Assembly: GCF_038446525.1 (NCBI RefSeq)
Contig: NZ_CP151792.1
Coordinates: 806,001-870,000, forward strand
Source of the DNA: Methanolobus sp. ZRKC5
GTDB taxonomy: Archaea; Halobacteriota; Methanosarcinia; Methanosarcinales; Methanosarcinaceae
DNA: 64,000 bases
Reading direction: 5' to 3'
Each line of letters starts with the position of its first letter. Position 1 is the stretch's first letter. The translations under genes were made by a program, and so were the position numbers. The notes under the pieces are model-generated. The model ran no database searches. It was not told the DNA's origin and saw only the letters and a program-made list of their open reading frames with translations. Shown one piece after another: positions 35,157 through 50,866 of the stretch.

Positions 35157-35756
35157 CTACTCTTTTCTGAGAAGGACTGCTGCTACCATAGCAGATGCAG
35201 CGGCCAACGCTGTAAATGCCGGAGTTGTTGGTGAACTGCTCTGACTGTCAGAGTCATCGATGGGCGCTGCCGTTGTTTCAAGGCCATCGTAGTACTCTTC
35301 GGAGATTGTGACGTAGGCGGCGGTGAATCTACCACTTGTAATCGTTTTTGCAGTATCCAAATCAGTCATTTGGTAGTAAAAATCAATTGGTGCACTTCCT
35401 CCAGCCCACTCTTCATTTGGAGCCACAGTCCATTCAAAAACCCTTGTCTCATTTACCTCCATTACCCCATCTGTAAACAATCCTAACTTTGATGTTGGAC
35501 CTTCAAGTATGTCAAAATCGTTTTCCCCAATCGAAGTTAACATTACTGACAAATCATTTCTTTTGTAACATGTCATTTCAAATCTCAGTTTGAATGGTTC
35601 ACCTATTTTCAAAAGTGGTTTTGGAGTTGAAGCTCCAGGATACAATTGATCATTGTAGTAGACATCAATATTAAAATTGGAACTTTTAGATGACACTGGT
35701 GTTGAAAACATTACTAATAAACATAAAACACATGCAATACCTAATTTATAATTCAT
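35157..35756 (-). CDS. Secreted sarcinarray-family surface protein
   Basis: 199 residues. A signal peptide (MNYKLGIACVLCLLVMFSTPVSS) leads a beta-rich domain (NIDVYYNDQLYPGASTPKPLLKIGEPFKLRFEMT ... VNETRVFEWTVAP) of the kind called sarcinarray in Methanosarcinales. A Ser/Asp/Thr-rich linker and a C-terminal TPAFTALAAASAMVAAVLLRKE segment follow, an archaeosortase-like sorting signal with a hydrophobic helix and basic end. It should be anchored at the outer cell surface. It lies nine bases downstream of the giant membrane protein, so the two are probably co-expressed. Confidence 0.72.
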   Translation of the reverse strand: MNYKLGIACVLCLLVMFSTPVSSKSSNFNIDVYYNDQLYPGASTPKPLLKIGEPFKLRFEMTCYKRNDLSVMLTSIGENDFDILEGPTSKLGLFTDGVMEVNETRVFEWTVAPNEEWAGGSAPIDFYYQMTDLDTAKTITSGRFTAAYVTISEEYYDGLETTAAPIDDSDSQSSSPTTPAFTALAAASAMVAAVLLRKE

Positions 35757-35765
35757 ATTTGCTCC

Positions 35766-38700
35766 TCAAAATTGTGATTCAAAATCCTCATAATAAAATG
35801 ATTTTTCATCTCTATCTCCTACTTTATCTCCAACTCCTTTTGGCCCTGGTCCTACAATTGTTGCTGCGAACCCAGAAAAGCCAAACACAATCGGTTGGTT
35901 ACGCCCAATATAGATGAATCCACCATCGTCTTCTCTTTTTGTAGGATGAACAACTCTGTCATCTTTACGAATGTAAACTTGTGCATCATGTCCAAAATAT
36001 GGATTGAACATGCATTCATTATCGTTATCAATAACTTCAAATTCCTTATAAACACCTTTTACATCATATTCCCACACATTCACCGTACAAACCCAGTTAG
36101 GTGGCAACACAGGCAATCCGCAAGGAATCATTTTCATAGATTTCTGCAACCTCTTTTCCATCTTTTCAGCAAACTGAGCTGTCAGTTTATCAGTTGATTC
36201 ATCCAGTTTGTTTTGTAACTCGTTATTGATGTTTGTGAAACATTGATCGATAACTGCCTGGCAGCTCTGTATAGCTACGCACACTCCTTCTGTCACACCA
36301 ATCTGCATGTCTGCTTCGAGGCGGTATAGTGCCACATCAATTTCATTGGAGGGGATTGAAGGATTCTCATTTATGATTTTCTGGCTGACCTGAGCAAATA
36401 TATCATCCTGAAGGGTGTTGTTTGAGCTCATGTTTACAAGTTCAGCATCTGATAGAGTTGCAAGGTAATCTTTAGTTATTTGGTTTACATCTGCACTGCT
36501 GATCCATGTGCTCAGAACCGGGTCTTTTGAAACTTCGCTAGCAATCGTCAAGGGTACCTGCTGTCTGATAGCATCGCTGTATGCGTCCATCATTCTCGTG
36601 CGGTTCTCTTCTATGTGGGTTGTATCTGTAGATACACCTTTCATGGTAAACTCTGCACTGTTGCTGCCGATATCTTCAAGCAGAGAATCTATTTCAGCAT
36701 TTGCATCTGCAAGACTCTGGCTCATAGACTGGGAAACCACATCTTTCAGGGGTTCAGAAGCATCAGCAAGCATTGCTGCAATATCATCACCTATTCCTGT
36801 GGAGAATACGCAGACATTACGAACAGCCAGCGGATATACTTCCTTGCCGGATTCATCCGTCCATTTATACTGGCTTTGAAGGTCGAAACCCGGGTCGTGG
36901 TAGAGATAATCAGGGTACTGGTCCACAACAAGAATGAGGTTTTCGGTCCAGTTGTATTTGCTGTTGGGCATTCCTACAACCTGCATCGTTTCTATGATGC
37001 CCATTTCTGCGCCAAGGGCAGTTGAAGCCTTATCCATAGCAGGGTTGTTGAAGAGTACATCGGTTGAGACTTTGTTCTTTAAAAGACTTAGAAGGGAATG
37101 GCCCTGTTCCTCTTCAAAAGATTTGTCAACGTATTGATCAAATGAGCCTTCTGCATTTTTGTTTCTTTCCTTGAGCTCTTTGAGCAGGCGCTCGTATGCT
37201 TCATTCTTTGCAATGGCACGACAGGCAGCACTACTTGTAGTGAATTGGCTTGCGTCCATGTATTGAGCTTGTTGGATGAAAGATTCTCGTTTTGACGTTC
37301 CCTTCATCTCCGCAGCAAGATCCAGAGATGCAAGTTGTATCAGCGTTGTTGGGTTTTTGCCAAGATTCGCGCCAAGCAAGGATACCTCCCTGGTAGGATT
37401 ATCCGTATTGATGGCACTGAACATCTCCTCCATTTCTGTTGCCATATTATAATGAAGCCAGTCAGGAACGTCGCAATAAACTGTTTCCACAGGGAGCAGT
37501 GTTCCGTTGGTGTAAGCAAGATAATTGCCCTGAAGAATTGGTAGTTTGGGAGAGACTTCCTGTTCACGATACTTATCTGCTGCATCACTGCAGCCCTTAT
37601 CATTTAATGGAATGCCGTCGACAATCACAGTGCTTGATTTGTAGTCATTGCCACTTCCAGAACCGTAGGAACTCAGGCCATTGTACCCACCGGAAGGTAG
37701 GTATTGATAATATACAACGCTGAAGTTCTCAGTTTCTGTCTGTGTGTGGGATACTTTTGTATAATCATTAAGCGGGTAATTTTTGAGTGAGTCGGAAGAG
37801 TCGCCATTGAAATATTTGCGGTTGTTCGTATATGAATTATAGGTCATGTAAGACCAGTGATATGTATAATCGATGTCCCAGCGTGTTTTGATCCTGAATT
37901 TGACGTTGTAAGTGACCTTCCAGTCAAAACTATGATTCTCGTCAGACAGGTATCCGTCTGTGCGTTCAAGATTTTCTATCCTGTCATTTCCAAGGTATTC
38001 ATAATTAACATCCACTCCTTCACAGACTACGTCTGTGGATACATGATTCACTGTAACAGATTTATAATACCATTTGTGGGACGAAGCATCGATATTCACC
38101 TTGTGGTTTACATCTAATATGCCACTAAAATTATAATCAGGTGTCAGAGCACAGGTATGTGAAACATTGACTGGATAGTGGGCTGTCCACTTAATGTCCG
38201 TACCAGTTTTTGAGTTCCCACCCTGCCATGTAGCAGGTTCGTAAGTTGTAGATCCGACCTGCAAATCATAAGGAGTTGAAGTATTGAACCCATCTCTGAT
38301 GACCTGCCCCTGTATCGTACCGCTGTACACCTCATGAGTAACATCATGCAGCAGGTCCGGGTATTCCGTGCTTTTCCACACATCATCATCGTTGTAGACC
38401 CAGTTGCTATACACCTCATTTGTGAAATTGGAAACAGAAACCACTATCTTTGAATTATTGGCGACTTCTTCCATTGTAGTATTGGCATCTTTCATGGACT
38501 TGTTTATCCCCTGTGAGACGCTGATATTGAAAGTGCCTTCATCTGAGAGACTATCGTAGGTAGTGCTCAGGTTACTTCCTTTGTCATCTTCGTAGGTACT
38601 GGTGTCGCGTTTGACATCATTATAGAGAACTTTTCCGTTGTAATAAGTAGTGTATGTGAGAGCCCATGGGTCCACAGAATCAAAGATACGTTTCTGGGCA

Positions 38701-39824
38701 TAGAGAGTGCCGGCATTCACAGAAGCCGTCAATGACGGACCGGTGACAATGTTCAACGGACCGTTCAGATAGTGTTGCCACGGGCCATATGTGAAAGTTC
38801 GGATATTGGTAGCACCCAGTACGATGTCAGAGGTAACTCCGCCGCTTAACTCTGTTTCGTATTCGTTGACCAATTGCTCCAGCAAGGGTTCTCTAGAAGT
38901 GATGATAGCTGTCACATTCATGGAATCTGTGCTGGATGCGTTCGTTGTAAGGTCCACCAGAGTATAATCCAGGTCATGGACGTTCATAATATAATATATA
39001 GGATAATCAGGATCATCTGAAGCTGACCTGCTAATCTCCCTTTTCAGGGTTCCGTTGATCTTATCTATTCTTATTTGCGAAGGATCAACATTCGGTTCTA
39101 TGTTAACCGCATAATTGTTGAAAGTATGCTGGTTTTCCTGATAGGATGTCTGCAGGTATTCATTGAAATACTCCGCAGTGATATCTTTAATAGGACTGCT
39201 GCCCACATGGAACCAGTCCACTGCCTTTGCCTCTTCGTCATATTCCAGAATCAGGTAAGTGTAACCATATTCAGCATTTTCGGGAATCACGATCTCTTCC
39301 TCGAAACTTGAGCTGCTCCAGAATGAATGGGATTCATTGTAGTCTATCTTCTTGTATATCGTCCCTGAATCACTTTTTACAATCAGGGTCCTTTGCTTAT
39401 CCGAAAAGAGACAGGAAATGAATTTGAATGTATCAGAAGGAAGGGACACTGATACCTTTATCGTATCACCGGGTTCTACATCACGACTATCGGATGATAC
39501 GGAGAAATCATCAGATCCCATAATTTCATTTGTAGTGGTTTCAGGTTTTATCACCGGATGTTCACCCTGCCATACAAGAGCTTCCATGCCCGCATAATTG
39601 AGACAGCGTGCAAGATCAGCAGATGCAAATTCAACAGCTGCTCTTTCCATATCAGCAGTATTAGTAGTGTAGATAACTTCCGCAAGTTCATAATCAGTCT
39701 TTGCTATATATACGGATGCTATTACCGCGAAGAGAAGAATGAACATACCAATTACCGCAAAGGGAATGTAAGCCCGGGTATCCTGACTAAAACAACGTTT
39801 TTTATTCGCGGGATATGAATTCAT
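35766..39824 (-). CDS. Giant pilin-like/membrane-anchored exported protein (1352 residues)
   Basis: One membrane helix lies near the start (about residues 19-43, YIPFAVIGMFILLFAVIASVY), preceded by the short motif SQDTRA, like the charged segment before archaeal pilin helices. The rest is predicted exported: rich in Ser, Thr, Asn and Tyr, with many N-glycosylation sequons and a few Cys. The C-terminal region GLPVLPPNW-CTVNVWEYDVKGVYKEFEV and VGPGPKGVGD resembles, from memory, the haloarchaeal DUF7286 family found in pilin-like gene clusters. A plus-strand set of similar but smaller proteins starts at 41400. The function is unknown; I infer a component of a type IV pilus-like surface structure. 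Confidence 0.7.
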   Translation of the reverse strand: MNSYPANKKRCFSQDTRAYIPFAVIGMFILLFAVIASVYIAKTDYELAEVIYTTNTADMERAAVEFASADLARCLNYAGMEALVWQGEHPVIKPETTTNEIMGSDDFSVSSDSRDVEPGDTIKVSVSLPSDTFKFISCLFSDKQRTLIVKSDSGTIYKKIDYNESHSFWSSSSFEEEIVIPENAEYGYTYLILEYDEEAKAVDWFHVGSSPIKDITAEYFNEYLQTSYQENQHTFNNYAVNIEPNVDPSQIRIDKINGTLKREISRSASDDPDYPIYYIMNVHDLDYTLVDLTTNASSTDSMNVTAIITSREPLLEQLVNEYETELSGGVTSDIVLGATNIRTFTYGPWQHYLNGPLNIVTGPSLTASVNAGTLYAQKRIFDSVDPWALTYTTYYNGKVLYNDVKRDTSTYEDDKGSNLSTTYDSLSDEGTFNISVSQGINKSMKDANTTMEEVANNSKIVVSVSNFTNEVYSNWVYNDDDVWKSTEYPDLLHDVTHEVYSGTIQGQVIRDGFNTSTPYDLQVGSTTYEPATWQGGNSKTGTDIKWTAHYPVNVSHTCALTPDYNFSGILDVNHKVNIDASSHKWYYKSVTVNHVSTDVVCEGVDVNYEYLGNDRIENLERTDGYLSDENHSFDWKVTYNVKFRIKTRWDIDYTYHWSYMTYNSYTNNRKYFNGDSSDSLKNYPLNDYTKVSHTQTETENFSVVYYQYLPSGGYNGLSSYGSGSGNDYKSSTVIVDGIPLNDKGCSDAADKYREQEVSPKLPILQGNYLAYTNGTLLPVETVYCDVPDWLHYNMATEMEEMFSAINTDNPTREVSLLGANLGKNPTTLIQLASLDLAAEMKGTSKRESFIQQAQYMDASQFTTSSAACRAIAKNEAYERLLKELKERNKNAEGSFDQYVDKSFEEEQGHSLLSLLKNKVSTDVLFNNPAMDKASTALGAEMGIIETMQVVGMPNSKYNWTENLILVVDQYPDYLYHDPGFDLQSQYKWTDESGKEVYPLAVRNVCVFSTGIGDDIAAMLADASEPLKDVVSQSMSQSLADANAEIDSLLEDIGSNSAEFTMKGVSTDTTHIEENRTRMMDAYSDAIRQQVPLTIASEVSKDPVLSTWISSADVNQITKDYLATLSDAELVNMSSNNTLQDDIFAQVSQKIINENPSIPSNEIDVALYRLEADMQIGVTEGVCVAIQSCQAVIDQCFTNINNELQNKLDESTDKLTAQFAEKMEKRLQKSMKMIPCGLPVLPPNWVCTVNVWEYDVKGVYKEFEVIDNDNECMFNPYFGHDAQVYIRKDDRVVHPTKREDDGGFIYIGRNQPIVFGFSGFAATIVGPGPKGVGDKVGDRDEKSFYYEDFESQF

Positions 39825-40164: not shown

Positions 40165-41400
40165 ATGAAGATAAGCAAACCACGAGGTACACGTGATTTC
40201 CCCCCGGAAGACACAAAGAAAAGAAGATACGTGGAGAACATACTACGTCAGGTCGTTAAGAATTGGGGATTCAACGAGATAATCACTCCAACATTTGAGA
40301 AACTGGAACTTTTCACACTCAAATCCGGTGAAGGAATAGTAGGGGAACTCTACAACTTCAAAGACAAGGGAGACAGGGAAATGACCCTGCGTCCGGAACT
40401 GACAGCTCCTGTCATGAGAATGTATGTCAATGAGATGCAATCATACCAGCAACCATTGAAGTTGTTCTATTTCGAGAACTGCTTTAGGTATGAGAGACCC
40501 CAGAAAGGACGCTTCAGAGAATTCTGGCAGTTCGGTGTGGAACTCATTGGCAGCAAAAGAGCAGACGCTGATGCTGAAGTCATTGCACTGGCAACCGAGA
40601 TGCTCAAATCCGTGGGTATCAAAGGTGACCTTCACGTGAATAATCTTGGTGTTATCAGAAACCTTCTGAACGTTTTGGAAACCGAGCACCAGAGCAAAAT
40701 AATGAGACTTGTTGACAAGAAAGATGACACAGGACTCAATGATTTCCTTGAGGAAATAAACGCACCTGCAGACCTGCGCATGAAACTCCTTGAACTTATA
40801 TGCCTCACAGGAGAGGGAGCAGTGACAAAGGCACGGGAACTTGTGGGAGACATTCCTGAAATAGAGACATTCCAGGAACTTCTGACTCTTCTGGATACCT
40901 ACGGCGTGGAATATACAATTGATTTTGGAATCGCCAGGGGACTTGACTACTACACAGGCACAGTCTTTGAAATATACGCTGAGGGACTTGGTGCCCAGAA
41001 TCAGGTATGTGGAGGAGGTTCATACAATCTTATCAAACTATTTGGCGGCGGAGATGTGCCATCCACAGGATTCGGCCTTGGATTTGACAGGATAATGGAA
41101 GTCTGTGAGATGGAAGCGCCTGATGACAAGCCGCTCGTTATCATTGCAAAGGACAGTACACGTCTTGATGCTGTGAAAGCTGCTACTAAACTCAGGCCAC
41201 ACATGCCGGTATACAATGACCTGATGAAGAGGAATTTCAAAGCCCAGTTATCCTATGCAAACAACATCGGTGCCAATTATGTGGTAATAATCGGTGAGCA
41301 GGAAGTTGAAGCCGGAAAAGTTACTTTGAAGGACATGAAAAACGGTGAGCAGGAACTTCTGACTCTTGAAGATGTCATTCAAAAACTTACAAACAAATGA
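40165..41400 (+). CDS. hisS: Histidyl-tRNA synthetase
   Basis: 411 residues. Class II motifs: [18 protein letters not shown] at the start, [36 protein letters not shown] (motif 2), [16 protein letters not shown] and the motif-3 stretch [12 protein letters not shown]. The anticodon-binding domain follows. It charges tRNA-His. The stop overlaps the ATG of the first pilin-like gene (ATGATGG), so translation of the pilin-like genes is probably coupled to it. Confidence 0.96.
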
Positions 41401-41891
41401 TGGAAAAATCCCCGATAAGCATCATAAAAAATGAAAGGGCAGCAGATGCCCTTCCCATGAGAATGGTGGTTGCAGTTATTGCCATAGGAGCATTGCTGCT
41501 TCTACTATCAACAGCAGTATCCTCACTACTTGAAAATGAGGAAATGTATGCTACTGAAGCTGTAATATCGGAAATAGAAGGTCATGCTGACCAGATGTCT
41601 TCCAGGGGAGCTGGCAGCAATATAACTCTTGAAATTGATATTCCTTCAAATACAAAACTTGTAATGGGAGCTGTCCCGGGGAAAGAGGATAATTGGCCTT
41701 CCGATTCCCGGAACTACTACATAGAGGTCAACGGAAAGCAAATCATCGGAGAGTCCATTGCATTTTATTCTAATGTTTCACTTGATGGATGCGCTGTCCT
41801 GAGCCCCGGTCCGCACATAATTACCATGGAAAGTGTCCGCGATCAAAATAGAAAAATTTTTATTACACTTAGTGATAAGTCCCAGTTGTAA
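41400..41891 (+). CDS. Pilin-like membrane protein A
   Basis: 163 residues from the ATG at 41400 ([18 protein letters not shown]); an in-frame ATG three bases earlier is an alternative. A charged stretch with ERA precedes one membrane helix (about 21-41, RMVVAVIAIGALLLLLSTAV). The external part is beta-rich with one Cys, ending KIFITLSDKSQL. No named function. The position of the helix, the ERA motif and the size match archaeal type IV pilin-like proteins, but no prepilin peptidase site is certain. Its TAA overlaps the ATG of gene B by one base. Confidence 0.65.
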   Translation: MEKSPISIIKNERAADALPMRMVVAVIAIGALLLLLSTAVSSLLENEEMYATEAVISEIEGHADQMSSRGAGSNITLEIDIPSNTKLVMGAVPGKEDNWPSDSRNYYIEVNGKQIIGESIAFYSNVSLDGCAVLSPGPHIITMESVRDQNRKIFITLSDKSQL

Positions 41892-42390
41892 TGAAAAAAC
41901 GGACAATAGTTAATACCATAGATCCTTCTTCGTTAGTTGGTACGAAAAGCTTTACTGATGATAACACTGCGTGGGTAGACCTGATACTTTCAAAAACAGC
42001 ACTCATCATAGTAACTGTGGTCATCTTTGCCGCAGTATATAATCTGACTTCCATTTCATCAGATATGGTCAAAAAGAATGAGCTGGAAGTACTCGCAATT
42101 GACCTGGCATCAAACATTGATTCGCTGGGAAGTATTCATTCCGGTACAGACAATGCAGTGAAAATATACAATTTTGACAGTTCTGCAAGACAACTAACTA
42201 ACCGTGGCAGACTAAATATCTCAGTCACCGGAGAATATGTAAGCTGCACTTTTTCGGATAGTGGAAACAACCTGGCTGTTGTCAAACCTCTGAATTACAG
42301 GACACTACCCTTTAGTCCCGAAAATCTCAGGAATCTCCTCACAGGAGAATTTGCAGCAGATGGAAATGCAAGCCACCCTGTTAATTCAAT

Positions 42391-42396
42391 ATTTCC
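42391..42396. repeat. Target duplication of the MITE, left copy
   Basis: ATTTCC just before the left inverted repeat, repeated at 42593-42598 just after the right inverted repeat. Six bases. Confidence 0.88.
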
Positions 42397-42592
42397 AGTA
42401 ACTATTCAGCCTGGCACGATTTGCCTATTGGTACTGATTTCATCGAAATAGAGATGTCTGCTCACTAACAATCTAACAATCAAAAAAGCAATCAATAGCA
42501 ACAATCAAAATAAATGATCCTAATGAAATTTACGTTTCAACTTTTTGTCAAGATTGTTATTGATAGCGTTTTTATCAGGCTGAATAGTTACT
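42397..42592. mobile_element. MITE-like element, 196 bp
   Basis: Terminal inverted repeats AGTAACTATTCAGCCTG are identical over 17 bases (42397-42413; 42576-42592). The interior (160 bases) is AT-rich and encodes no transposase; only a short frame MKFTFQLFVKIVI-DS near 42523 is visible. The host sequence ATTTCC is duplicated at 42391-42396 and 42593-42598. The features fit a small nonautonomous transposon mobilised by an unlinked transposase. The repeats do not match the IS5 element at 31796, so another family must supply the enzyme. Confidence 0.9.
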
Positions 42593-42729
42593 ATTTCCAT
42601 ACACAAACCTGACAGAGTTCCTGTCCATTACCGCAGCAGAAGAGTTCTGTTTGAACATCAGTGAAGAAGTCCATATAGAAAAAAAACACGTATTTGTAAC
42701 AGACGGAAGCGAGGTGAATGAACTTGAAT

Positions 42730-43227
42730 ATGTCCTCGTTTACCAGTGATGAAAGAGCTTTTCTTGAGCCGAACAACGATATAATAGCTACCGCAATGGT
42801 GGTTATTGGATTTGTTGTTTTTGCAGCTATCCTGTCAAAGACATTCATCGCATTCAATGACAATTCACAGGCACTTGAAAACTATGAGCAGGCTGCCATG
42901 ATAGCACAGGACATTGCATCTTATCCACCCCTTCAGGGAAGCAGACCTGAACTCATTTCTGCAGAATCACTTGACAGGATTACCACTTCCTCTGCAAATG
43001 AGGAACGCTATATGTTCTTCCAGCGTTTTTCCCCCAATCTTGAGTTTTATGTTGAAGCGGTAACAGACAATGGAAACCACCAATGGACAATTGTAGACGG
43101 GGCAGTTTCACTTAATGGCAGGGATGTCATTGCATCATCAGTGCCAGTTGTCATTGAACTTGGAAGCAATGCACGCTGCGTTCCCGGAACCATTACTGTG
43201 AAGATCATGCAGAACAAGTGGGAATGA
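42730..43227 (+). CDS. Pilin-like membrane protein C
   Basis: 165 residues. The ATG at 42730 is chosen because GAGGTGA (42711-42717) is too close to the ATG at 42718 to serve it. The N-terminus MSSFTSDERAFLEPNNDI carries the DERA motif before a membrane helix (about 18-37, IIATAMVVIGFVVFAAIL). The external part includes YEQAAMIAQDIASYPPLQ and ends VPGTITVKIMQNKWE. It overlaps the end of the intact form of gene B by 20 bases, so B and C were once translationally linked. Function unknown, probably a surface-filament or secretion subunit. Confidence 0.65.
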   Translation: MSSFTSDERAFLEPNNDIIATAMVVIGFVVFAAILSKTFIAFNDNSQALENYEQAAMIAQDIASYPPLQGSRPELISAESLDRITTSSANEERYMFFQRFSPNLEFYVEAVTDNGNHQWTIVDGAVSLNGRDVIASSVPVVIELGSNARCVPGTITVKIMQNKWE

Positions 43228-43258
43228 AACAAGTGGAAATGTGAAAACGGAGATCGAC

Positions 43259-44473
43259 ATGCTACAATCTAAACCCACCGGGAAAAAAAGCCATCTCTCT
43301 GAAATGTTCAGGGATGAGAATGCATTCTCATCAAGCATCGATGCCATTTTCTTCCTAATCCTGGTTTCTATTTCCGCAGTAATTCTTTTGCCTTCTATTG
43401 CAGCAGATGAGCAATATCGATCGGCATCTTATACTTCAGCGCAGGTTATGGACATGTGCCTAATGAATACCATCATGAGCAGCACCGTAGATGAATTTGA
43501 GTACACATTAAAACCCACTGATCTGGCAGGCATCAATGTAAACCTCTCGGAAAATTCAATTCTTGAAGATGCAGAGGAGACAGTATTTACAAAAGAACAA
43601 CGCCATCGCACCTTTTCAGACCTTGTAGCCGAGGGTCTGGTACTGAGCTTGTACCAGACAGAGAACGGTACTATGAAACCTCTTAATCCCATGACAAAAA
43701 TGCAAAGCTTTGAAACTGAAAGGCAAATAGAAGCTCACCTTGAAAGAACCATAGGACAGAGATATAATTACAGATTTGAAGCCCACTGGCAGCCTGTTAT
43801 CGGATATAAACTACAAAGTGATATAGTAATAGGAGAGGAAGCACCTGAAACTGCAATCAAGCAAAAAGTTAGGATATCGCTACCTGTAACATATTTGGTC
43901 ACAAAAGAAGAGATATACAAGCCTTTCAATGAGACAAAAATACACAATGCGATTAATTCTCCTGAGCCGGATAAAGAGCTGCGTGATATGTTCAACGACA
44001 GCATTGGAATTGCATCGGGTGGATGTGCAGAGATAATTACAGATATCGTTTTTCCATATGATTATCTGTCATCACTAAATAGCACTGAGATATCGGTAAA
44101 CAGTGAACAACTGGCATGTCTTGCAGGTCCTGATGATGAAAATTATAGCAGCCCTGTGATACAGAGTGCCCTTGGATGCATGAACTACACAATAAATGAC
44201 CTTTACGGACTGAACATAGCAATAAACCCGGAAGAACAAAGTATCAGCCTGGATATTGTAGACACAGTCAATACTGTAATAATGGATGTGAACACTCAGC
44301 TCATATCAGATCATATCATTAACTACCAGAGTGATGATATCAACAAGACTATCGCACTCATATGTAATACCACGGACAACAGCACAAGATATGAACTTGC
44401 CAACATCCAATTAGATGCAATATATAAAACAGCGAATCCGGCTGGTGCAGACATTGTGCTCATTATATGGTGA
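43259..44473 (+). CDS. Pilin-like membrane protein D
   Basis: 404 residues from the ATG at 43259 (GGAG six bases upstream). A charged segment MFRDENAFSSS precedes a membrane helix (about 27-46, IDAIFFLILVSISAVILLPS), and the rest is predicted exported with several Cys and Asn-X-Ser/Thr sites. The DEN-AF motif parallels DERAF in C. It is the last gene of the hisS-linked group. No transposon or frameshift is visible. Homologues of unknown function (DUF7284-like in haloarchaea, from memory) lie in pilin-type clusters. Confidence 0.62.
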   Translation: MLQSKPTGKKSHLSEMFRDENAFSSSIDAIFFLILVSISAVILLPSIAADEQYRSASYTSAQVMDMCLMNTIMSSTVDEFEYTLKPTDLAGINVNLSENSILEDAEETVFTKEQRHRTFSDLVAEGLVLSLYQTENGTMKPLNPMTKMQSFETERQIEAHLERTIGQRYNYRFEAHWQPVIGYKLQSDIVIGEEAPETAIKQKVRISLPVTYLVTKEEIYKPFNETKIHNAINSPEPDKELRDMFNDSIGIASGGCAEIITDIVFPYDYLSSLNSTEISVNSEQLACLAGPDDENYSSPVIQSALGCMNYTINDLYGLNIAINPEEQSISLDIVDTVNTVIMDVNTQLISDHIINYQSDDINKTIALICNTTDNSTRYELANIQLDAIYKTANPAGADIVLIIW

Positions 44474-45250: not shown

Positions 45251-45274
45251 TTGTTTTAAAGATCATTGTATGCC

Positions 45275-46492
45275 ATGAAAGCAATCATTCTCGCAGCCGG
45301 TGAAGGTAAAAGATGCCGGCCCCTTACACTTGCAAGATCAAAGGTAATGCTTCCGGTAGCAAACAAACCCATCCTTGAACATGTCATCAATGCCCTTGTA
45401 AAAAACAACATCAAGGAAATTATATTGATAGTAGGATATAAAAAAGAACGCATAATGGATCATTTTGAAGACGGGTTAGATTTTGGCGTCAAAATAGAAT
45501 ACATTGAACAAAAAACACAAATCGGAACCGCACATGCCATTCTTCAGGCTCGCCAGATGATTGGCCAGAATGAAGAGACCTTTATTGTTGTGAATGGTGA
45601 TAACATAATAGGCCCCGATACAATATCGGATCTTATAAACGGTGCACAAGGCGATGCAACAATCCTTACATGCAAAAAAGACGACGTCAGCAACTATGGA
45701 GTAATAGTTGCAAAAGGAAAGAATGTTAAGGAAATCATTGAAAAACCAAAGACGCTTGTAAGTCATCTGATCAACACAGGAACATATCTATTCAAACGAG
45801 AAATATTTGAAATGATAGAAAAAACACCAATCTCGGCAACTGGAGAATATGCCATAACTGACACACTCCAATCAATGGTCGATAATGGAATAGATGTGAC
45901 AATGGCAATAACCAATACAGATTGGCTTGATGCTGTGTACTCATGGAACCTGCTGGAAGCAAACACAATTGTACTTGGTGACTTTGAAACCGACATCAGC
46001 AAAGCAAAGGTTGAAGATGGAGTAAATATCAAAGGCAGCGTATCAATAGGAAATAACACCACCATCAGAGCAGGCTCATATATAGTCGGACCAGTAGTCA
46101 TTGGAGATAATTGTGACATCGGACCAAATGTTGTCATACTTCCTTCTACATGCATTGGAAATAACGTTTCAGTGGCCTCGTTCACATACATAAAGAATAG
46201 TATCCTCATGAATGATGTACGTATCAGCACCCACAGTAATGTATCCAGTTCAGTAATTGGAAGTAACGTTTCAACGGGACCAAATTTCATCACAGAAGAA
46301 AATACTGAGATGCTTATTCAGATCGAAGGCGAGTTGCAAAACGCAGAAAAGCTCGGGACCATTATAGGTGATGATACGGAGATTGGAAGCAACGTGCTTG
46401 TTCGTGCAGGAAATTTGGTATCTGTGAACTGTCGCATAAGTTCAGGTAAAACGATTACACAGGATATTCCAGCAGACTCAATCTTGATTTAA
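45275..46492 (+). CDS. Bifunctional sugar-1-phosphate nucleotidylyltransferase/acetyltransferase (GlmU-like 1)
   Basis: 405 residues from ATG 45275 (MKAIILAAGEGKRCRPLT). The N-terminal nucleotidyltransferase domain has LAAGEGKRCRPLTLARSKVMLPVANKP, GTAHAI and VVNGDNI. The C-terminal half is a left-handed beta-helix of hexapeptide repeats ([39 protein letters not shown]). Archaeal proteins of this type acetylate glucosamine-1-phosphate and transfer UMP to give UDP-GlcNAc. A close paralogue at 49658 shares the same architecture. The first GXG loop here has Cys-Arg instead of Met-Arg. Confidence 0.85.
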   Translation: MKAIILAAGEGKRCRPLTLARSKVMLPVANKPILEHVINALVKNNIKEIILIVGYKKERIMDHFEDGLDFGVKIEYIEQKTQIGTAHAILQARQMIGQNEETFIVVNGDNIIGPDTISDLINGAQGDATILTCKKDDVSNYGVIVAKGKNVKEIIEKPKTLVSHLINTGTYLFKREIFEMIEKTPISATGEYAITDTLQSMVDNGIDVTMAITNTDWLDAVYSWNLLEANTIVLGDFETDISKAKVEDGVNIKGSVSIGNNTTIRAGSYIVGPVVIGDNCDIGPNVVILPSTCIGNNVSVASFTYIKNSILMNDVRISTHSNVSSSVIGSNVSTGPNFITEENTEMLIQIEGELQNAEKLGTIIGDDTEIGSNVLVRAGNLVSVNCRISSGKTITQDIPADSILI

Positions 46493-46502
46493 GGTGATTA
46501 AA

Positions 46503-48332
46503 ATGTGTGGAATAGTTGGATATATTGGTGATGGACAAGCCGTGCCCATTTTACTTGAATCACTCAAAATGCTGGAATACAGAGGATATGATTCTGCAGG
46601 TATTTCTGTTTTCAACGGATCACTTGAAACATACAAGATAGCTGGAAGGATAAAGAACCTGGAAGCCATAATTCCTGAGAATATGCAGGGAAACATCGGT
46701 ATAGGACATACAAGATGGGCAACGCATGGAAAACCTGAAACCAGAAACTCTCACCCCCATCTCTCATCTAATATCTCAGTGGTCCACAACGGGATCATCG
46801 AAAATTATATGGAACTCAAGGAAAGATTGATAGACCTTGGATATGAATTCAAGTCTGAAACGGATACTGAAGTTATAGCACATCTTTTGCATTTCAATAT
46901 GAACTGCAGTGGAAAAAAATGCCTGCTTGACAGCCTTGCAGAAACAATAAAAGAACTTGATGGTTCATATGCAATTGCAGCCCTGTGTGCTGACGAGCCC
47001 GACATAATAGCTTTTGCCAGAAAAAATAGTCCCCTTGTTATAGGAATAGGGAACGGCAGCAATTATGCCGCATCAGATGTCACTGCTTTTTTAAAGCATA
47101 CAAAGGAAGTAATCTATATCAACAACAATGAGATAGGTTTTCTAAAACCAGACTCTATTGAAATATTTGACCTTGATGGAAACAGTGTTTCCAGAGATAC
47201 GGAAACCATAGAATGGACCCTTGAAGCTGCTGAAAAAGCAGGTTATGAGCATTTCATGTTAAAAGAGATCCATGAACAACCCACCTCGATCCAGAATACC
47301 TTTGCAGGTAAATTATCAGAGCTTGAAGGAACCGTTACATTGGATGAACTCTATCTTGAACGTGAAGAGATAAAACGACTTAGAAGAGCTACCATTATAG
47401 CCTGTGGCACCTCATGGAACGCAGGAACACTTGGCAAATATCTTTTTGAAAAGCTCGCAGGGCTCCATACTGATATAGAAACCGCATCAGAATTTAGATA
47501 CGGTAACCCGGTCCTTTGTGGAGAGGAATTAACAATTGCTATTACTCAGTCAGGCGAGACCGCTGACACCCTGGCTGCTGTCAGGAGTTCAAGCTCCTAC
47601 GGCTGTCGCAGCATTGCCATAACAAACGTTGTTGGAAGCACCATCACAAGAGAATCTGACAGCGTACTGTATACCAGATCAGGACCTGAAATCGGAGTTG
47701 CTGCAACAAAGACCTTCACAGCCCAGTTAATCACACTATACATGCTTGCCATTCATCTCGGGAGGATACGTGGTGTTGTCAGCGCAAACGAGGCAAAGGA
47801 TCTTATCGTTGCAATGAAGCGTCTTCCAGGACAGATACAAAAGATACTCAACAGAAAAGACGCAATAAAGGAATGTGCTACGCTGTTCGCAGACAAGAGA
47901 GATTGTTTCTTTATCGGGCGCTACCTGAATTACCCTGTGGCCCTTGAAGGAGCACTTAAACTCAAAGAAATATCATATATACATGCTGAAGGTTATGCGG
48001 CTGGTGAACTCAAACACGGTCCTCTGGCACTTATAACTGATGAGACACCCGTAGTTGCAATAGCCACCCGGGGACATACATATGAAAAAATACTCAGCAA
48101 CATCAAAGAAGTAAAAGCACGCAATGCCATTGTCGTTGCAGTAGCTGATGATGATGATACAGAGATAGAAAAATATGTGGATGTTGTGATCCGAGTACCA
48201 CCTTCACATGAATTGTTAGCACCGGTCCTTTCATCTGTAGCACTGCAGTTGCTTTCATATTATACTGCACTGGCAAAGGATTGTTCCATTGATAAACCCA
48301 GGAATCTTGCAAAGAGTGTAACCGTCGAATGA
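46503..48332 (+). CDS. glmS: Glutamine-fructose-6-phosphate aminotransferase
   Basis: 609 residues starting MCGIVGYIGDGQ at ATG 46503, so that Cys2 is the N-terminal nucleophile after Met removal; an upstream GTG at 46494 would block it. The glutaminase domain shows HTRWATHGKPETRNSHPH; two SIS isomerase domains follow (ACGTSWNAGTLGKY, ITQSGETADTL, KDCFFIGRYLNYPVALEGALKLKE). It makes glucosamine-6-phosphate, the first step of UDP-GlcNAc synthesis. A ribosome binding site AAGGTGATT precedes it. Confidence 0.96.
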   Translation: MCGIVGYIGDGQAVPILLESLKMLEYRGYDSAGISVFNGSLETYKIAGRIKNLEAIIPENMQGNIGIGHTRWATHGKPETRNSHPHLSSNISVVHNGIIENYMELKERLIDLGYEFKSETDTEVIAHLLHFNMNCSGKKCLLDSLAETIKELDGSYAIAALCADEPDIIAFARKNSPLVIGIGNGSNYAASDVTAFLKHTKEVIYINNNEIGFLKPDSIEIFDLDGNSVSRDTETIEWTLEAAEKAGYEHFMLKEIHEQPTSIQNTFAGKLSELEGTVTLDELYLEREEIKRLRRATIIACGTSWNAGTLGKYLFEKLAGLHTDIETASEFRYGNPVLCGEELTIAITQSGETADTLAAVRSSSSYGCRSIAITNVVGSTITRESDSVLYTRSGPEIGVAATKTFTAQLITLYMLAIHLGRIRGVVSANEAKDLIVAMKRLPGQIQKILNRKDAIKECATLFADKRDCFFIGRYLNYPVALEGALKLKEISYIHAEGYAAGELKHGPLALITDETPVVAIATRGHTYEKILSNIKEVKARNAIVVAVADDDDTEIEKYVDVVIRVPPSHELLAPVLSSVALQLLSYYTALAKDCSIDKPRNLAKSVTVE

Positions 48333-48359
48333 ACATTTTATTTTAAGAGAGGATATTGA

Positions 48360-49661
48360 ATGAAATTATTTGGTTCTTCAGGCATCCGTGGACTTGCAAA
48401 TATAGAAGTTACCGTTGACCTGGCCCTGAAAGTAGGAATGGCTCTTGGCATATCAAAAAAGACTGCAGTCATCGGAAGAGATCCTCGTGTAGCCGGGGAG
48501 ATGATAGAACATGCGATCATCTCAGGTCTTATGTCTGCAGGATGTGATGTTGTCCGCGTTGGTCTTGTCACAACACCCACACTTGCATATGCAACCCGCA
48601 ATTATGACTGCGGAGTCATGGTCACTGCATCACATAACCCTGCACAGGATGTAGGAATTAAACTCTGGAACCCTGATGGAATGGCATTTGATTCCAACCA
48701 GCAGGAAGAAATAGAATCCATTATCGAGAAAGAGGATTTTGCTAATGTAGACTGGAATATGATAGGAGAATTATCTTCATATGAAAATGCAGTCAGAGAC
48801 CACATTGATATGATACGCAGCCATTCAACCGGTGCACCCCTAAGAGTTATTGTGGATTGTGGAGGTGGTGCCGGCGGAACTATAACACCATTCCTTTTAC
48901 GTGAGATGGGATGCGAGGTTATAACACTTAACTCACAGCTTGACGGACATTTTCCTGCACGTAATCCTGAACCAAAAGACTCGAATCTAGGAATGCTGAA
49001 AAAAGCGATGACTGCATTTGAGGCGGACCTTGGTATCGCACATGACGGGGATGCTGACAGAATGATGGCAGTGGATGAAAATGGTGTGTTCGTGTCAGGG
49101 GACGAAATGCTTGCCATCTTTGCACGCTATGAATGCAAAGACAATCCAAAGGTTGTAGTACCTGTTGACACCTCAATGATAGTCGATGATGCACTCCCTG
49201 GTTCCACTATCATCCACACACGAGTGGGCGACGTTTATGTCGCTGAGGAAATGAAGAAGCAGAAAGCTGATTTTGGCGGTGAGCCTTCCGGAAGCTGGAT
49301 CTTCCCAAGGATTTCCTATTGCCCTGACGGAATCTACGCTGCTGCCCTTCTTGTCGATATAGTCAAGGAAAAGAAACTCTCGGCCCTTAGAGAAGAACTC
49401 CCACAGTACCCAACACTCAGAACTACAGTTGCATGTGATAATTCGAGAAAGGACGAAGTTATGAAAGCTATCAGCTTAAAGCTTGCAACAATGGGTGAAG
49501 TTTCCAGTATAGACGGCATCAGAATTGATATGGAAGACGGCTGGGTGCTTGTCAGACCATCTGGAACCGAGGCAAAGATAAGAATTACAGCAGAGGCCAG
49601 AAAGAATGTGGAAGAACTCCATGCAAAAGTAGAGAGCATCGTTAAGGAGTGCCTTTTATGA
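48360..49661 (+). CDS. glmM: Phosphoglucosamine mutase
   Basis: 433 residues. The phosphoserine loop [18 protein letters not shown], the metal site [12 protein letters not shown], the sugar loop [10 protein letters not shown] and the C-terminal phosphate-binding [16 protein letters not shown] are intact. It converts glucosamine-6-phosphate to glucosamine-1-phosphate, the substrate of the neighbouring GlmU-like proteins. The stop overlaps the start of the next gene (TTATGA). Confidence 0.94.
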
Positions 49662-50866
49662 AAGTCGTTATACTTGCCGCCGGTGAAGGCACACGAATGA
49701 GACCACTCACCGTATCCAAACCAAAGGTTATGCTTCCCATAGCGAACAAACCAATGATGGAACATACAATTAATGCTGCCACGGATGCAGGAATAAAAGA
49801 GTTCCTCATTGTTACCGGATACCGTGAAGATGCAATTATGGATTATTTCATGGATGGTAGCCACCTTGGCATCAGTGTCGAGTACGTGCATCAGGAAGAG
49901 CAGCTTGGAACTGCCAATGCCATCGGTTATGCAAAAGAATATGTGAAAGGACATTTCATTGTTCTTAACGGTGACATGCTTGTAAGCAAAGAACATATCA
50001 GCCACCTTATATCAAGAACAGAAGATGCGATTATTAGTGTGAAGAAAGTTGAGAATCCTTCTCAGTTCGGTGTCATTGAAACCGAGGAAGATGAGGTTAC
50101 CAGAATTATCGAGAAGCCAAAGAACCCACCTACTAACCTTGCCAATGCTGGCATATATCTTTTTGATGATGTTATTTTTGATTACATAGATAAAACCGGA
50201 AAATCAAAAAGAGGGGAATATGAAATAACAGACTCACTGCAGATGATGATAGACGATGGCTGCAGCGTTGGTTATGAGATACTCACCAGCGAATGGATCG
50301 ATATTGGAAGACCCTGGGACATACTGGATGCAAACAAGGTGCTGCTTGAAAATATAGATAACACACGAGAAGGTGTCGTTGAGCCTTATGCAACCCTCAA
50401 TGGAAACGTCAATGTTGGCAAGAACACCATTATCCGCAACGGTGCTTACATAGTCGGACCGGTAATTATTGGCGATAACTGTGATATAGGACCTAACTGC
50501 TTCATCAGAGCTTCAACCGCTATTGGCAATGATGTTCATATTGGCAATGCTGTGGAGGTAAAGAACAGCGTGATCATGGATGGCACGAAAATAGGACACC
50601 TTTCATATCTTGGTGACAGTGTCATAGGCACAGCCTGTAATTTCGGTGCTGGCACTAAGGTTGCGAATCTCAGGCACGATAACAGGAACATAAGGTCAGT
50701 GGTAAAAGGTGAACTGGTAGACACGGGTCGCAGGAAACTTGGAGTCATCATGGGAGATGATGTTCATACCGGCATCAATACCAGCATCAATATCGGTACT
50801 GTAATGGAACCCGGAAGTTCTACCATGCCCGGTAAAGTTGTCACACACAAAAGAAAAGCTAATTAA
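49658..50866 (+). CDS. Bifunctional sugar-1-phosphate nucleotidylyltransferase/acetyltransferase (GlmU-like 2)
   Basis: 402 residues from the ATG at 49658 ([18 protein letters not shown]). It has the same two-domain design as GlmU-like 1: nucleotidyltransferase with [24 protein letters not shown] and [12 protein letters not shown], then hexapeptide beta-helix ([32 protein letters not shown]). The GEGTRMRP loop is canonical. One of the two may use glucosamine and the other glucose or another sugar phosphate. The ATG overlaps the glmM stop. Confidence 0.86.

What the first reader, a model, noticed from the sequence alone, without database searches (positions are those of the whole stretch)
41400..44473. 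A four-gene pilin-like locus coupled to hisS, with a divergent 1352-residue partner
Genes A, B, C and D each carry one N-terminal membrane helix preceded by a short charged motif containing an acidic pair then Arg/Asn/Thr and Ala (NERAAD, DDNTAW, DERAFL, DENAFS). The giant minus-strand protein has DTRAYI in the same place. The spacing is tight (hisS-A by ATGA overlap, A-B by one base). The parts resemble, from memory, haloarchaeal clusters with DUF7284-DUF7288 proteins. No ATPase or peptidase is in the window. The locus may encode a surface fibre or secretion device not yet characterised in methanogens.
Basis: partly seen in the sequence, partly recalled or inferred. Interest (0 to 1): 0.7.

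Follow-up and report, generated by a model that had tools for sequence, protein, structure and literature searches.

The report
Archaeal pilus genes, possibly swappable tip
A methanogen carries the subunit genes of a surface filament of the type IV pilus kind, apparently powered by a motor encoded elsewhere in its genome, and related species seem to recombine the presumed tip of that filament, together with a partner surface protein, with spare gene copies.

Summary
The four genes are real: the pilin-like operon of an archaeal type IV pilus (T4P) system, between hisS and uS15 in a Methanolobus-like genome. Profile comparison assigns A to DUF7311, C to DUF7285, D to DUF7284 and the 1352-aa protein to DUF7286; B matches DUF7283 by position only. 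In haloarchaea these families share an operon with a secretion ATPase and TadC. The cognate ATPase/TadC here lie 1.5 Mb away; that ATPase is in 53 of 53 DUF7284-positive genomes and 5 of 47 negatives. Its Cys-rich N-terminus fits 'subclade 4F' T4P (Makarova 2016). Gene B is split by a 194-bp MITE with at least 42 near-identical copies. And DUF7286 is paired with a downstream 'sarcinarray' MAST protein with a sorting-type C-terminus. In relatives, orphan DUF7286 C-termini alternate with sarcinarray genes in cassette arrays. In one contig the full gene and an orphan share 1038 identical bases, then diverge abruptly at the terminal beta domain. In Methanolobus, MAST diversity follows the tip, not the arm. 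I infer a filament whose tip/partner pair is exchanged by recombination. Filament assembly, tip position and switching are untested.

The parts
40165..41400 (+). hisS, upstream neighbour; positional link only
   Evidence: directly upstream of A in 14 of 28 loci
41397..41891 (+). Gene A, 164 aa, single N-terminal TM; DUF7311-like
   Evidence: hhalign prob 91, E 1.1e-6
41891..42451 (+). Gene B, first 186 codons before a premature end caused by the MITE; DUF7283 by position only
42398..42591 (.). 194-bp MITE-like insertion in B, 16-bp perfect inverted ends, 8-bp target duplication at 42390-42397 and 42592-42599
   Evidence: (42 listed copies at 99% or more, including this one)
42600..42749 (+). 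Remnant of the C-terminal part of B after the insertion
42718..43227 (+). Gene C, 169 aa, pilin-like; DUF7285-like; one long helix plus alpha/beta domain
   Evidence: (prob 93)
43241..44473 (+). Gene D, 410 aa; DUF7284
   Evidence: E 5.5e-11; prob 98
35766..39824 (-). Giant, 1352 aa, N-terminal TM with leader-like motif; DUF7286; presumed large terminal subunit
   Evidence: (E 7e-40)
35790..36092 (-). Terminal beta domain of the giant (residues 1245-1345), the segment that is variable in relatives
35157..35756 (-). Sarcinarray MAST protein, 199 aa, signal-peptide-like start and sorting-type C-terminus
   Evidence: (TIGR04209 E 4.3e-48)

Best explanation
A-D and the giant are the pilin-type and accessory subunits of an archaeal T4P-like filament of the subclade 4F kind. 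Step 1 (inferred): the one A24-type peptidase found in the genome trims the short charged leaders of C, D, the giant and probably A and B. Step 2 (supported by synteny in haloarchaea and co-occurrence, not biochemically): the ATPase and TadC at about 2.33 Mb are the engine and act in trans. Step 3 (inferred): C and D, with A and B as further pilins or membrane assembly partners, build a filament or pseudopilus that carries DUF7286 as its large terminal subunit, a helical arm ending in a beta domain. Step 4 (inferred from family and C-terminus): the sarcinarray MAST protein is exported by Sec, processed by the archaeosortase found at 1,197,618 and anchored on the surface, where it pairs with the DUF7286 tip. 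Step 5 (sequence signature shown in relatives, process inferred): tip plus MAST gene are exchanged as a unit by homologous recombination through the conserved arm and the conserved sarcinarray 3' end, using orphan cassettes or incoming DNA. In this strain B is truncated by a recent MITE, so the apparatus may be impaired.
For: DUF7284 and DUF7286 by Pfam. Diagonal hhalign matches A-DUF7311, C-DUF7285, D-DUF7284 between independent methanogen and haloarchaeal alignments. In haloarchaea these genes share an operon with ATPase and TadC (for L122) whose best own-genome matches are those at 2.33 Mb, 241-273 bits against 77-108 for the next ATPase where both are listed. The ortholog of that ATPase (400 bits or more) is in 53 of 53 DUF7284-positive genomes and 5 of 47 negatives; a control ATPase matches 93 of 100 genomes. 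14 Cys in its first 300 residues against 0-3 in the five other T2SSE matches. In four Methanocella-like loci A-B-C-D-giant-sarcinarray are contiguous. C is predicted as one 49-residue helix plus a sheet. One A24 peptidase and one full-scoring archaeosortase A. For the variable module.
Against: No pilin was listed among structural matches to C; the hits were PAS-like sensors and ribosomal S3, Z at most 7.0. Haloarchaeal counterparts of A and B start at the would-be mature end, without the leader, so A and B may not be pilins. The leader motif is common in unrelated proteins. A major PilA-type pilin was not looked for. Subclade 4F is assigned from described features; the paper's arCOG tables could not be opened. 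Co-occurrence counts are not corrected for shared ancestry. The window has a single giant-sarcinarray pair and no array.
Confidence: 0.7

Rival explanations
1. The set is a dedicated secretion or surface-display device (a pseudopilus) for DUF7286 and no extended filament is made.
For: No major pilin gene in the operon; DUF7286 is the largest and most distinctive product; haloarchaeal A and B lack leaders.
Against: Stand-alone major pilins are usual in archaeal T4P (PMC4858521, section 8), so their absence from the operon says little.
Confidence: 0.35
2. The DUF7286 tip and the sarcinarray gene are a polymorphic toxin and immunity-like pair: orphan C-termini with partner genes are the spare warheads.
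For: Orphan C-terminal modules lacking the N-terminus, each with its own downstream gene, in arrays; a comparable idea was raised for VARTIG in Thermococcales (PMC8416519, abstract).
Against: The tip stays one homologous domain with invariant residues rather than unrelated domains; the partner has a signal-peptide-like start and a sorting-type C-terminus, so it is on the cell surface rather than in the cytoplasm; no toxin family hit.
Confidence: 0.08
3. The cassettes are decaying duplications; recombination merely homogenises the arms and there is no functional switching.
For: Some array members are fragments (G055; a 185-aa piece in G045); several contigs end inside arrays, so assembly effects are possible for G027, G045, G061, G068, G080 and G084.
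Against: Many orphans remain long open frames ending in an intact tip plus a full sarcinarray gene; the G058 pair lies inside one 68-kb contig; in single-copy Methanolobus loci MAST distance follows the tip but not the arm.
Confidence: 0.4
4. A-D are membrane assembly proteins and chance neighbours of hisS; the true pilins of the ATPase are elsewhere, and the giant is an unrelated surface protein.
For: hisS is absent beside A-D in 14 of 28 loci, and the giant is away from A-D in other Methanosarcinaceae stretches examined.
Against: All five families share an operon with the engine in haloarchaea and stand together in four Methanocella-like loci.
Confidence: 0.12

Closest known systems
Subclade 4F archaeal type IV pili (Makarova, Koonin, Albers 2016, PMC4858521)
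   Same: Cys-rich ATPase N-terminus in methanogens; a coiled-coil partner in haloarchaea; ATPase/TadC separable from the pilin set; pilins of euryarchaeal type (sections 11 and 12 read).
   Different: arCOG membership could not be checked (supplements not readable here). The main text has no occurrence of hisS, and the sections read do not mention cassette arrays or a sarcinarray partner.
Haloarchaeal operon DUF7310-DUF7311-ATPase-TadC-DUF7283-DUF7285-DUF7284-DUF7286
   Same: Same families in a compatible order.
   Different: In Methanosarcinaceae it is split into the pilin operon, a giant-sarcinarray unit and a distant engine; sarcinarray was not found in Haloferax volcanii (control genomes); haloarchaeal A and B lack the leader.
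Haloferax volcanii PilB1-C1 and PilB3-C3 pili (PMC6491452, passages read)
   Same: ATPase/TadC-driven archaeal adhesion pili; engine and pilins can be encoded apart.
   Different: That paper places PilB1/2 in clade 4C and PilB3-5 in clade 2; the relation of the present ATPase to each was not tested by a tree.
VARTIG modules of Thermococcales (PMC8416519, abstract, outline and section 13 read)
   Same: Large surface protein with a hypervariable C-terminal domain shaped by recombination, and variable downstream genes.
   Different: Ig domains, no tandem orphan C-termini in what was read; that study reports no closely resembling module in other archaea. Its relation to pili was not read.
Neisseria pilE/pilS antigenic variation (recalled)
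   Same: An expressed pilus subunit with partial copies that share conserved stretches and differ in variable ones.
   Different: Here the variable unit spans two genes, the terminal domain of a giant subunit and a separate anchored partner; switching has not been observed.

Membership tests
Archaeal type IV pilus system (general) | VirB11/GspE-type secretion ATPase with cognate TadC | tested here: met
   Present in trans at G000:C1 about 2.331-2.336 Mb, adjacent and on one strand; co-occurs with DUF7284
Archaeal type IV pilus system (general) | Class III signal peptide before a single N-terminal helix in the subunits | tested here: inconclusive
   Leader-like motif in all five window proteins; a loose regex does not separate the families cleanly from background; cleavage not testable
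Archaeal type IV pilus system (general) | Prepilin peptidase in the genome | tested here: met
   One Peptidase_A24 match over cut-off, 261-aa frame
Archaeal type IV pilus system (general) | Pilin fold (long N-terminal helix plus beta domain) | tested here: inconclusive
   C model: helix 19-67 plus four strands; no pilin listed among matches; A, B, D not modelled
Subclade 4F T4P | Cys-rich N-terminal domain on the ATPase in methanogens | tested here: met
   14 Cys in residues 1-300 and two CxxC in 1-320; the five other T2SSE matches have 0-3 Cys
Subclade 4F T4P | Halobacterial coiled-coil partner in the locus | tested here: met
   DUF7310 coiled-coil protein beside DUF7311 in L122; identity with arCOG07564 not testable
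Subclade 4F T4P | Dedicated major pilin arCOG02981 | not tested
   arCOG profiles not on hand
Subclade 4F T4P | ATPase placed in 4F by phylogeny | not tested
   No reference sequences of that tree were fetched
DUF7284 (D) | Pfam gathering score | tested here: met
   43.3 bits against cut-off 27
DUF7286 (giant) | Pfam gathering score | tested here: met
   137.8 bits against cut-off 27
DUF7311 (A) and DUF7285 (C) | Pfam gathering score of the window protein itself | tested here: not met
   No direct Pfam hit; the relation rests on profile-profile comparison, so A and C are called relatives, not members
DUF7283 (B) | Profile similarity | tested here: inconclusive
   hhalign prob 0.1 (Methanosarcinales) and 4.8 (Methanocella-like); positional match only
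Sarcinarray MAST family TIGR04209 | Curated cut-off 45 bits | tested here: met
   162.9 bits
Cassette-type antigenic variation system | Partial copies sharing identical flanks with a full gene and differing in a bounded segment | tested here: met
   In relatives: G058 1038-bp identity then abrupt divergence; G027 857-bp exact run between two orphans. No array in the window
Cassette-type antigenic variation system | Observed switching within a clone | not testable with these tools
   Needs population or long-read data

The most novel reading that the evidence does not exclude
An archaeal T4P-like filament carries a two-gene variable recognition module: the terminal beta domain of DUF7286 and the adjacent archaeosortase-anchored sarcinarray protein are cognate partners that are swapped together from arrays of silent cassettes, through conserved flanks in the helical arm and in the sarcinarray 3' end. 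It would be an archaeal counterpart of pilus antigenic variation in which a tip and its surface partner switch together, possibly as a kin-recognition or virus-evasion device.
Probability: 0.35. Interest if true: 0.85.

Novelty: new variant of a known kind. Interest (0 to 1): 0.6.

Why it matters
It gives a concrete assignment (engine, subunits, large terminal protein, anchored partner) to a set of DUF families for which my searches found no described function, in a genus of culturable methylotrophic methanogens. If the cassette reading holds, it would make directly testable whether archaea vary pilus tips by recombination, as some bacterial pathogens do (recalled), and would explain why sarcinarray genes occur in arrays in some methanogens and related lineages.

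Tried and rejected
Motif alone: a loose regex for the charged leader hits 19 of 61 unrelated single-N-TM ORFs, so I do not rely on it. A stricter FlaFIND-type pattern was considered from memory only and not computed.

DUF7287/7288: not supported; the only sign was a sub-threshold DUF7287 hit (E 0.009) on the haloarchaeal DUF7285 protein.

B = DUF7283: tested and not significant.

Other engines: the MinD-ATPase-TadB-TadC-like set at about 2.675 Mb and the ATPase/TadC pair at about 0.285 Mb looked tempting, but the haloarchaeal operon's ATPase prefers the 2.33-Mb one, and the 2.675-Mb ATPase has matches in 93 of 100 genomes, including genomes without DUF7284 such as G003-G006. The 0.285-Mb ATPase was not run as a control.

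Structures: Foldseek and VIA-align on C and Foldseek on the giant's C-terminal model gave no match above unspecific level; pilins were absent from the lists, which does not exclude them. PDB sequence searches with both profiles gave nothing meaningful.

Coupling statistics, results against the simple reading: in the Methanosarcinaceae arrays tip and MAST correlate only weakly (r 0.30; 5 of 500 permutations reach it); in family f2 arm, tip and MAST all move together (r 0.73-0.86), so there the arm is part of the variable block. Over all 25 rows the tip also follows the arm (r 0.85), and the partial tip-MAST correlation is 0.64. Within Methanolobus the tip is not less conserved than the arm (median identities 0.72 and 0.63). 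Permutations were not corrected for phylogeny.

Rows dropped: only pairs of seven chosen array genomes with a gap between -130 and +60 nt were kept (35 pairs, some with full-length genes, some cut by contig ends). In one search, 26 loci were tried and 25 kept; one (G002) had no sarcinarray in the fetched stretch. G026 counts as DUF7284-negative although A and B are intact there and C runs off the fetched stretch.

Literature: searches for DUF7284-7288 (0 papers), sarcinarray (1 paper, one table row), archaeal pilus antigenic variation and phase variation (nothing on this system in the listings), archaeosortase and MAST (listing), polymorphic toxins in archaea (listing) and Methanolobus with type IV pili (listing). 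The library lacks most subscription papers, and the TIGRFAM notes on sarcinarray were not readable here, so earlier notice of the arrays cannot be excluded; the family's name itself suggests that arrays were noticed by its authors.
Full report
What is in the window. Genes A-D lie between hisS and uS15 on the plus strand, and the 1352-aa gene runs away from hisS on the minus strand, followed 9 nt later by a 199-aa gene. The window is G000:C1:806001-870000 of a 3.05-Mb genome; the nearest named relatives by gene C are Methanolobus species.

Family assignment. Pfam recognises D as DUF7284 (E 5.5e-11) and the giant as DUF7286 (E 7e-40); A, B and C have no acceptable direct hit. I built A-D profiles iteratively from fetched loci and then compared methanogen-only alignments with haloarchaea-only ones by hhalign: A-DUF7311 prob 91, C-DUF7285 prob 93, D-DUF7284 prob 98. 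All off-diagonal pairs of the Methanosarcinales profiles against the haloarchaeal families were at 2% or less. Against the Methanocella-like profiles the diagonal was 99.4-100, the largest off-diagonal 13.3. B was not significantly like DUF7283, which occupies the place between TadC and DUF7285 in haloarchaea. In one haloarchaeal locus Pfam names nearly the whole run: DUF7310 coiled coil, DUF7311, T2SSE, [TadC by BLAST], DUF7283, DUF7285, DUF7284, DUF7286 (L122).

Synteny. A-B-C-D stand in this order on one strand in 27 of 28 loci examined; the exception, L146, shows only C and D. hisS is directly upstream, same strand, in 14 of 28. In four own-genus loci and one further locus DUF7286-sarcinarray sits divergently beside hisS as in the window; in the other Methanosarcinaceae stretches taken around DUF7286 no A-D gene was labelled.

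The engine. The genome has six T2SSE matches, none in the window. Haloarchaeal ATPases of the DUF7284 operon score 241-273 bits with the one at 2,333,220-2,335,832 and 77-108 with the second best where that is listed; TadC has its best match at the same place. The ortholog of this ATPase (400 bits or more) is in all 53 DUF7284-positive genomes of 100 and in 5 of 47 negatives (G003, G026, G086, G096, G099) (Fisher p 5e-23, not corrected for relatedness). A control ATPase has matches in 93 of 100 genomes. The first 300 residues of the candidate hold 14 cysteines against 0-3 in the others. With the coiled-coil partner in haloarchaea this fits the description of subclade 4F (PMC4858521, section 12). 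One A24 peptidase and one archaeosortase A of full score are present.

Loss and damage. Four same-genus genomes lack DUF7284 and DUF7286 (G003-G006). In G003, G004 and G005 hisS has no A-D beside it, and in G006 a 97-aa piece of D and a 325-aa piece of the giant remain beside hisS. In the window itself B is split by a 194-bp element with perfect 16-bp inverted ends and an 8-bp target duplication; 42 copies at 99% identity or more, this one included, were listed in this genome, 40 of 204 candidates having been scored, so the number is a lower bound. In the 27 complete loci of relatives B and C overlap. The near-identity of the copies suggests that the insertion is recent, and it was not seen in the other loci.

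The partner. The 199-aa protein is a sarcinarray MAST protein (TIGR04209, TIGR04204) with a signal-peptide-like start and a C-terminal hydrophobic stretch with a basic end. A sarcinarray gene follows DUF7286 within -12 to +34 nt in 25 of 26 loci. Sarcinarray genes are in 52 of 100 relatives, with up to 12 copies.

Cassettes. In G045, G027, G058, G061, G068, G080 and G084, shortened DUF7286 genes that lack the N-terminal helix alternate with sarcinarray genes; I collected 35 adjacent pairs, which include some full-length genes and some pieces cut by contig ends. In the Methanosarcinaceae arrays the helical arm is 74%, 90% and 100% identical within a genome (medians for G045, G027, G058), the sarcinarray tail 68%, 86% and 67%, but the tip only 65%, 69% and 66% and the MAST domain 53%, 52% and 51% (for G058 this is a single pair). 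At nucleotide level, G058's full gene and orphan, in one contig, share 1038 identical bases and then fall to 0.55-0.77 per 100 bases; two G027 orphans show an 857-bp exact run and the same cliff, with identity rising again at the end of sarcinarray. In G045 the cliff is sharp in one pair and shallow in the others. G055, one contig, has four sarcinarray genes with up to 94.7% identity over 188 bp at their 3' ends and pieces like DUF7286 between them. So recombination between the full gene and partial copies is the likely cause. Whether it homogenises arms or moves tips is not decided by these data.

Coupling. Among 17 own-genus rows the MAST distance is unrelated to the arm distance (r -0.05) but related to the tip distance (r 0.53; partial 0.57, 0 of 1000 permutations). 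G024, closer by hisS (89%) and D (74%) than most of the nine genomes compared, has the most different MAST domain of them (50%), while G025 (hisS 85%) has 86%. G016 carries four sarcinarray genes, the best of them 85% like the window's and the one next to its giant 56%. In family f2 arm, tip and MAST vary together and only the tail is independent.

Structure. C is predicted (pLDDT 80.6) as a single helix of residues 19-67 and a four-stranded sheet with two short helices; matches are unspecific (Z at most 7.0). The giant's last 618 residues are predicted at moderate confidence (pLDDT 71.5, pTM 0.42) as a helical arm and a terminal beta domain, with no Foldseek match.

Judgement. Shown: family identity of D and giant, profile relationship of A and C, synteny, co-occurrence of the distant ATPase, split B, pairing of DUF7286 with sarcinarray, cassette arrays, recombination-like signature in relatives. 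Inferred: filament assembly, tip position, leader cleavage, lipid anchoring, tip-MAST binding, switching. Papers: PMC4858521 (outline, sections 8, 9, 11, 12 and passages), PMC6491452 (passages), PMC8416519 (abstract, outline, section 13), PMC5244752 (one table passage), PMC12369344 (passages).

Noticed in passing
window 42398-42591 and 41 further places in G000:C1: A 194-bp MITE-like element with perfect 16-bp inverted ends, in at least 42 copies at 99% identity or more, some in tandem; it seems to have spread very recently. Its mobilising transposase was not identified.
   Followed up: partly
G033, G046, G056 (L218:6734-7402, L219:7129-7794): Genomes of one genus (g8) carry a sarcinarray gene but no DUF7286 match, so the partner can occur without the giant or the giant there has diverged.
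   Followed up: no
L216:3412-4890 (G080:C73): A 492-aa sarcinarray protein whose C-terminus looks like a dockerin-type repeat (by eye, not tested).
   Followed up: no
G000:C1 about 2,675,000-2,680,200 (L087:5163-10117): MinD-like protein, secretion ATPase and two short TadB/TadC-like proteins in a row with no pilin gene beside them; assigned from sequence and topology by eye, apart from the ATPase.
   Followed up: partly
G003:C1:1513703-1515616: A same-genus genome keeps an 88% identical ATPase ortholog (matching residues 237-870) although DUF7284, DUF7286 and sarcinarray are not found in it.
   Followed up: partly
window 45266-50866: A glmU-glmS-glmM-glmU paralogue block after uS15 stays next to A-D in many Methanosarcinaceae loci (gene names recalled, not tested by family search).
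   Followed up: no
L124:1614-2198 and L127:1186-1686: Second, weaker A-profile matches in two haloarchaeal loci, with a DDRA-type leader in one; possibly a paralogue or drift of the profile.
   Followed up: no
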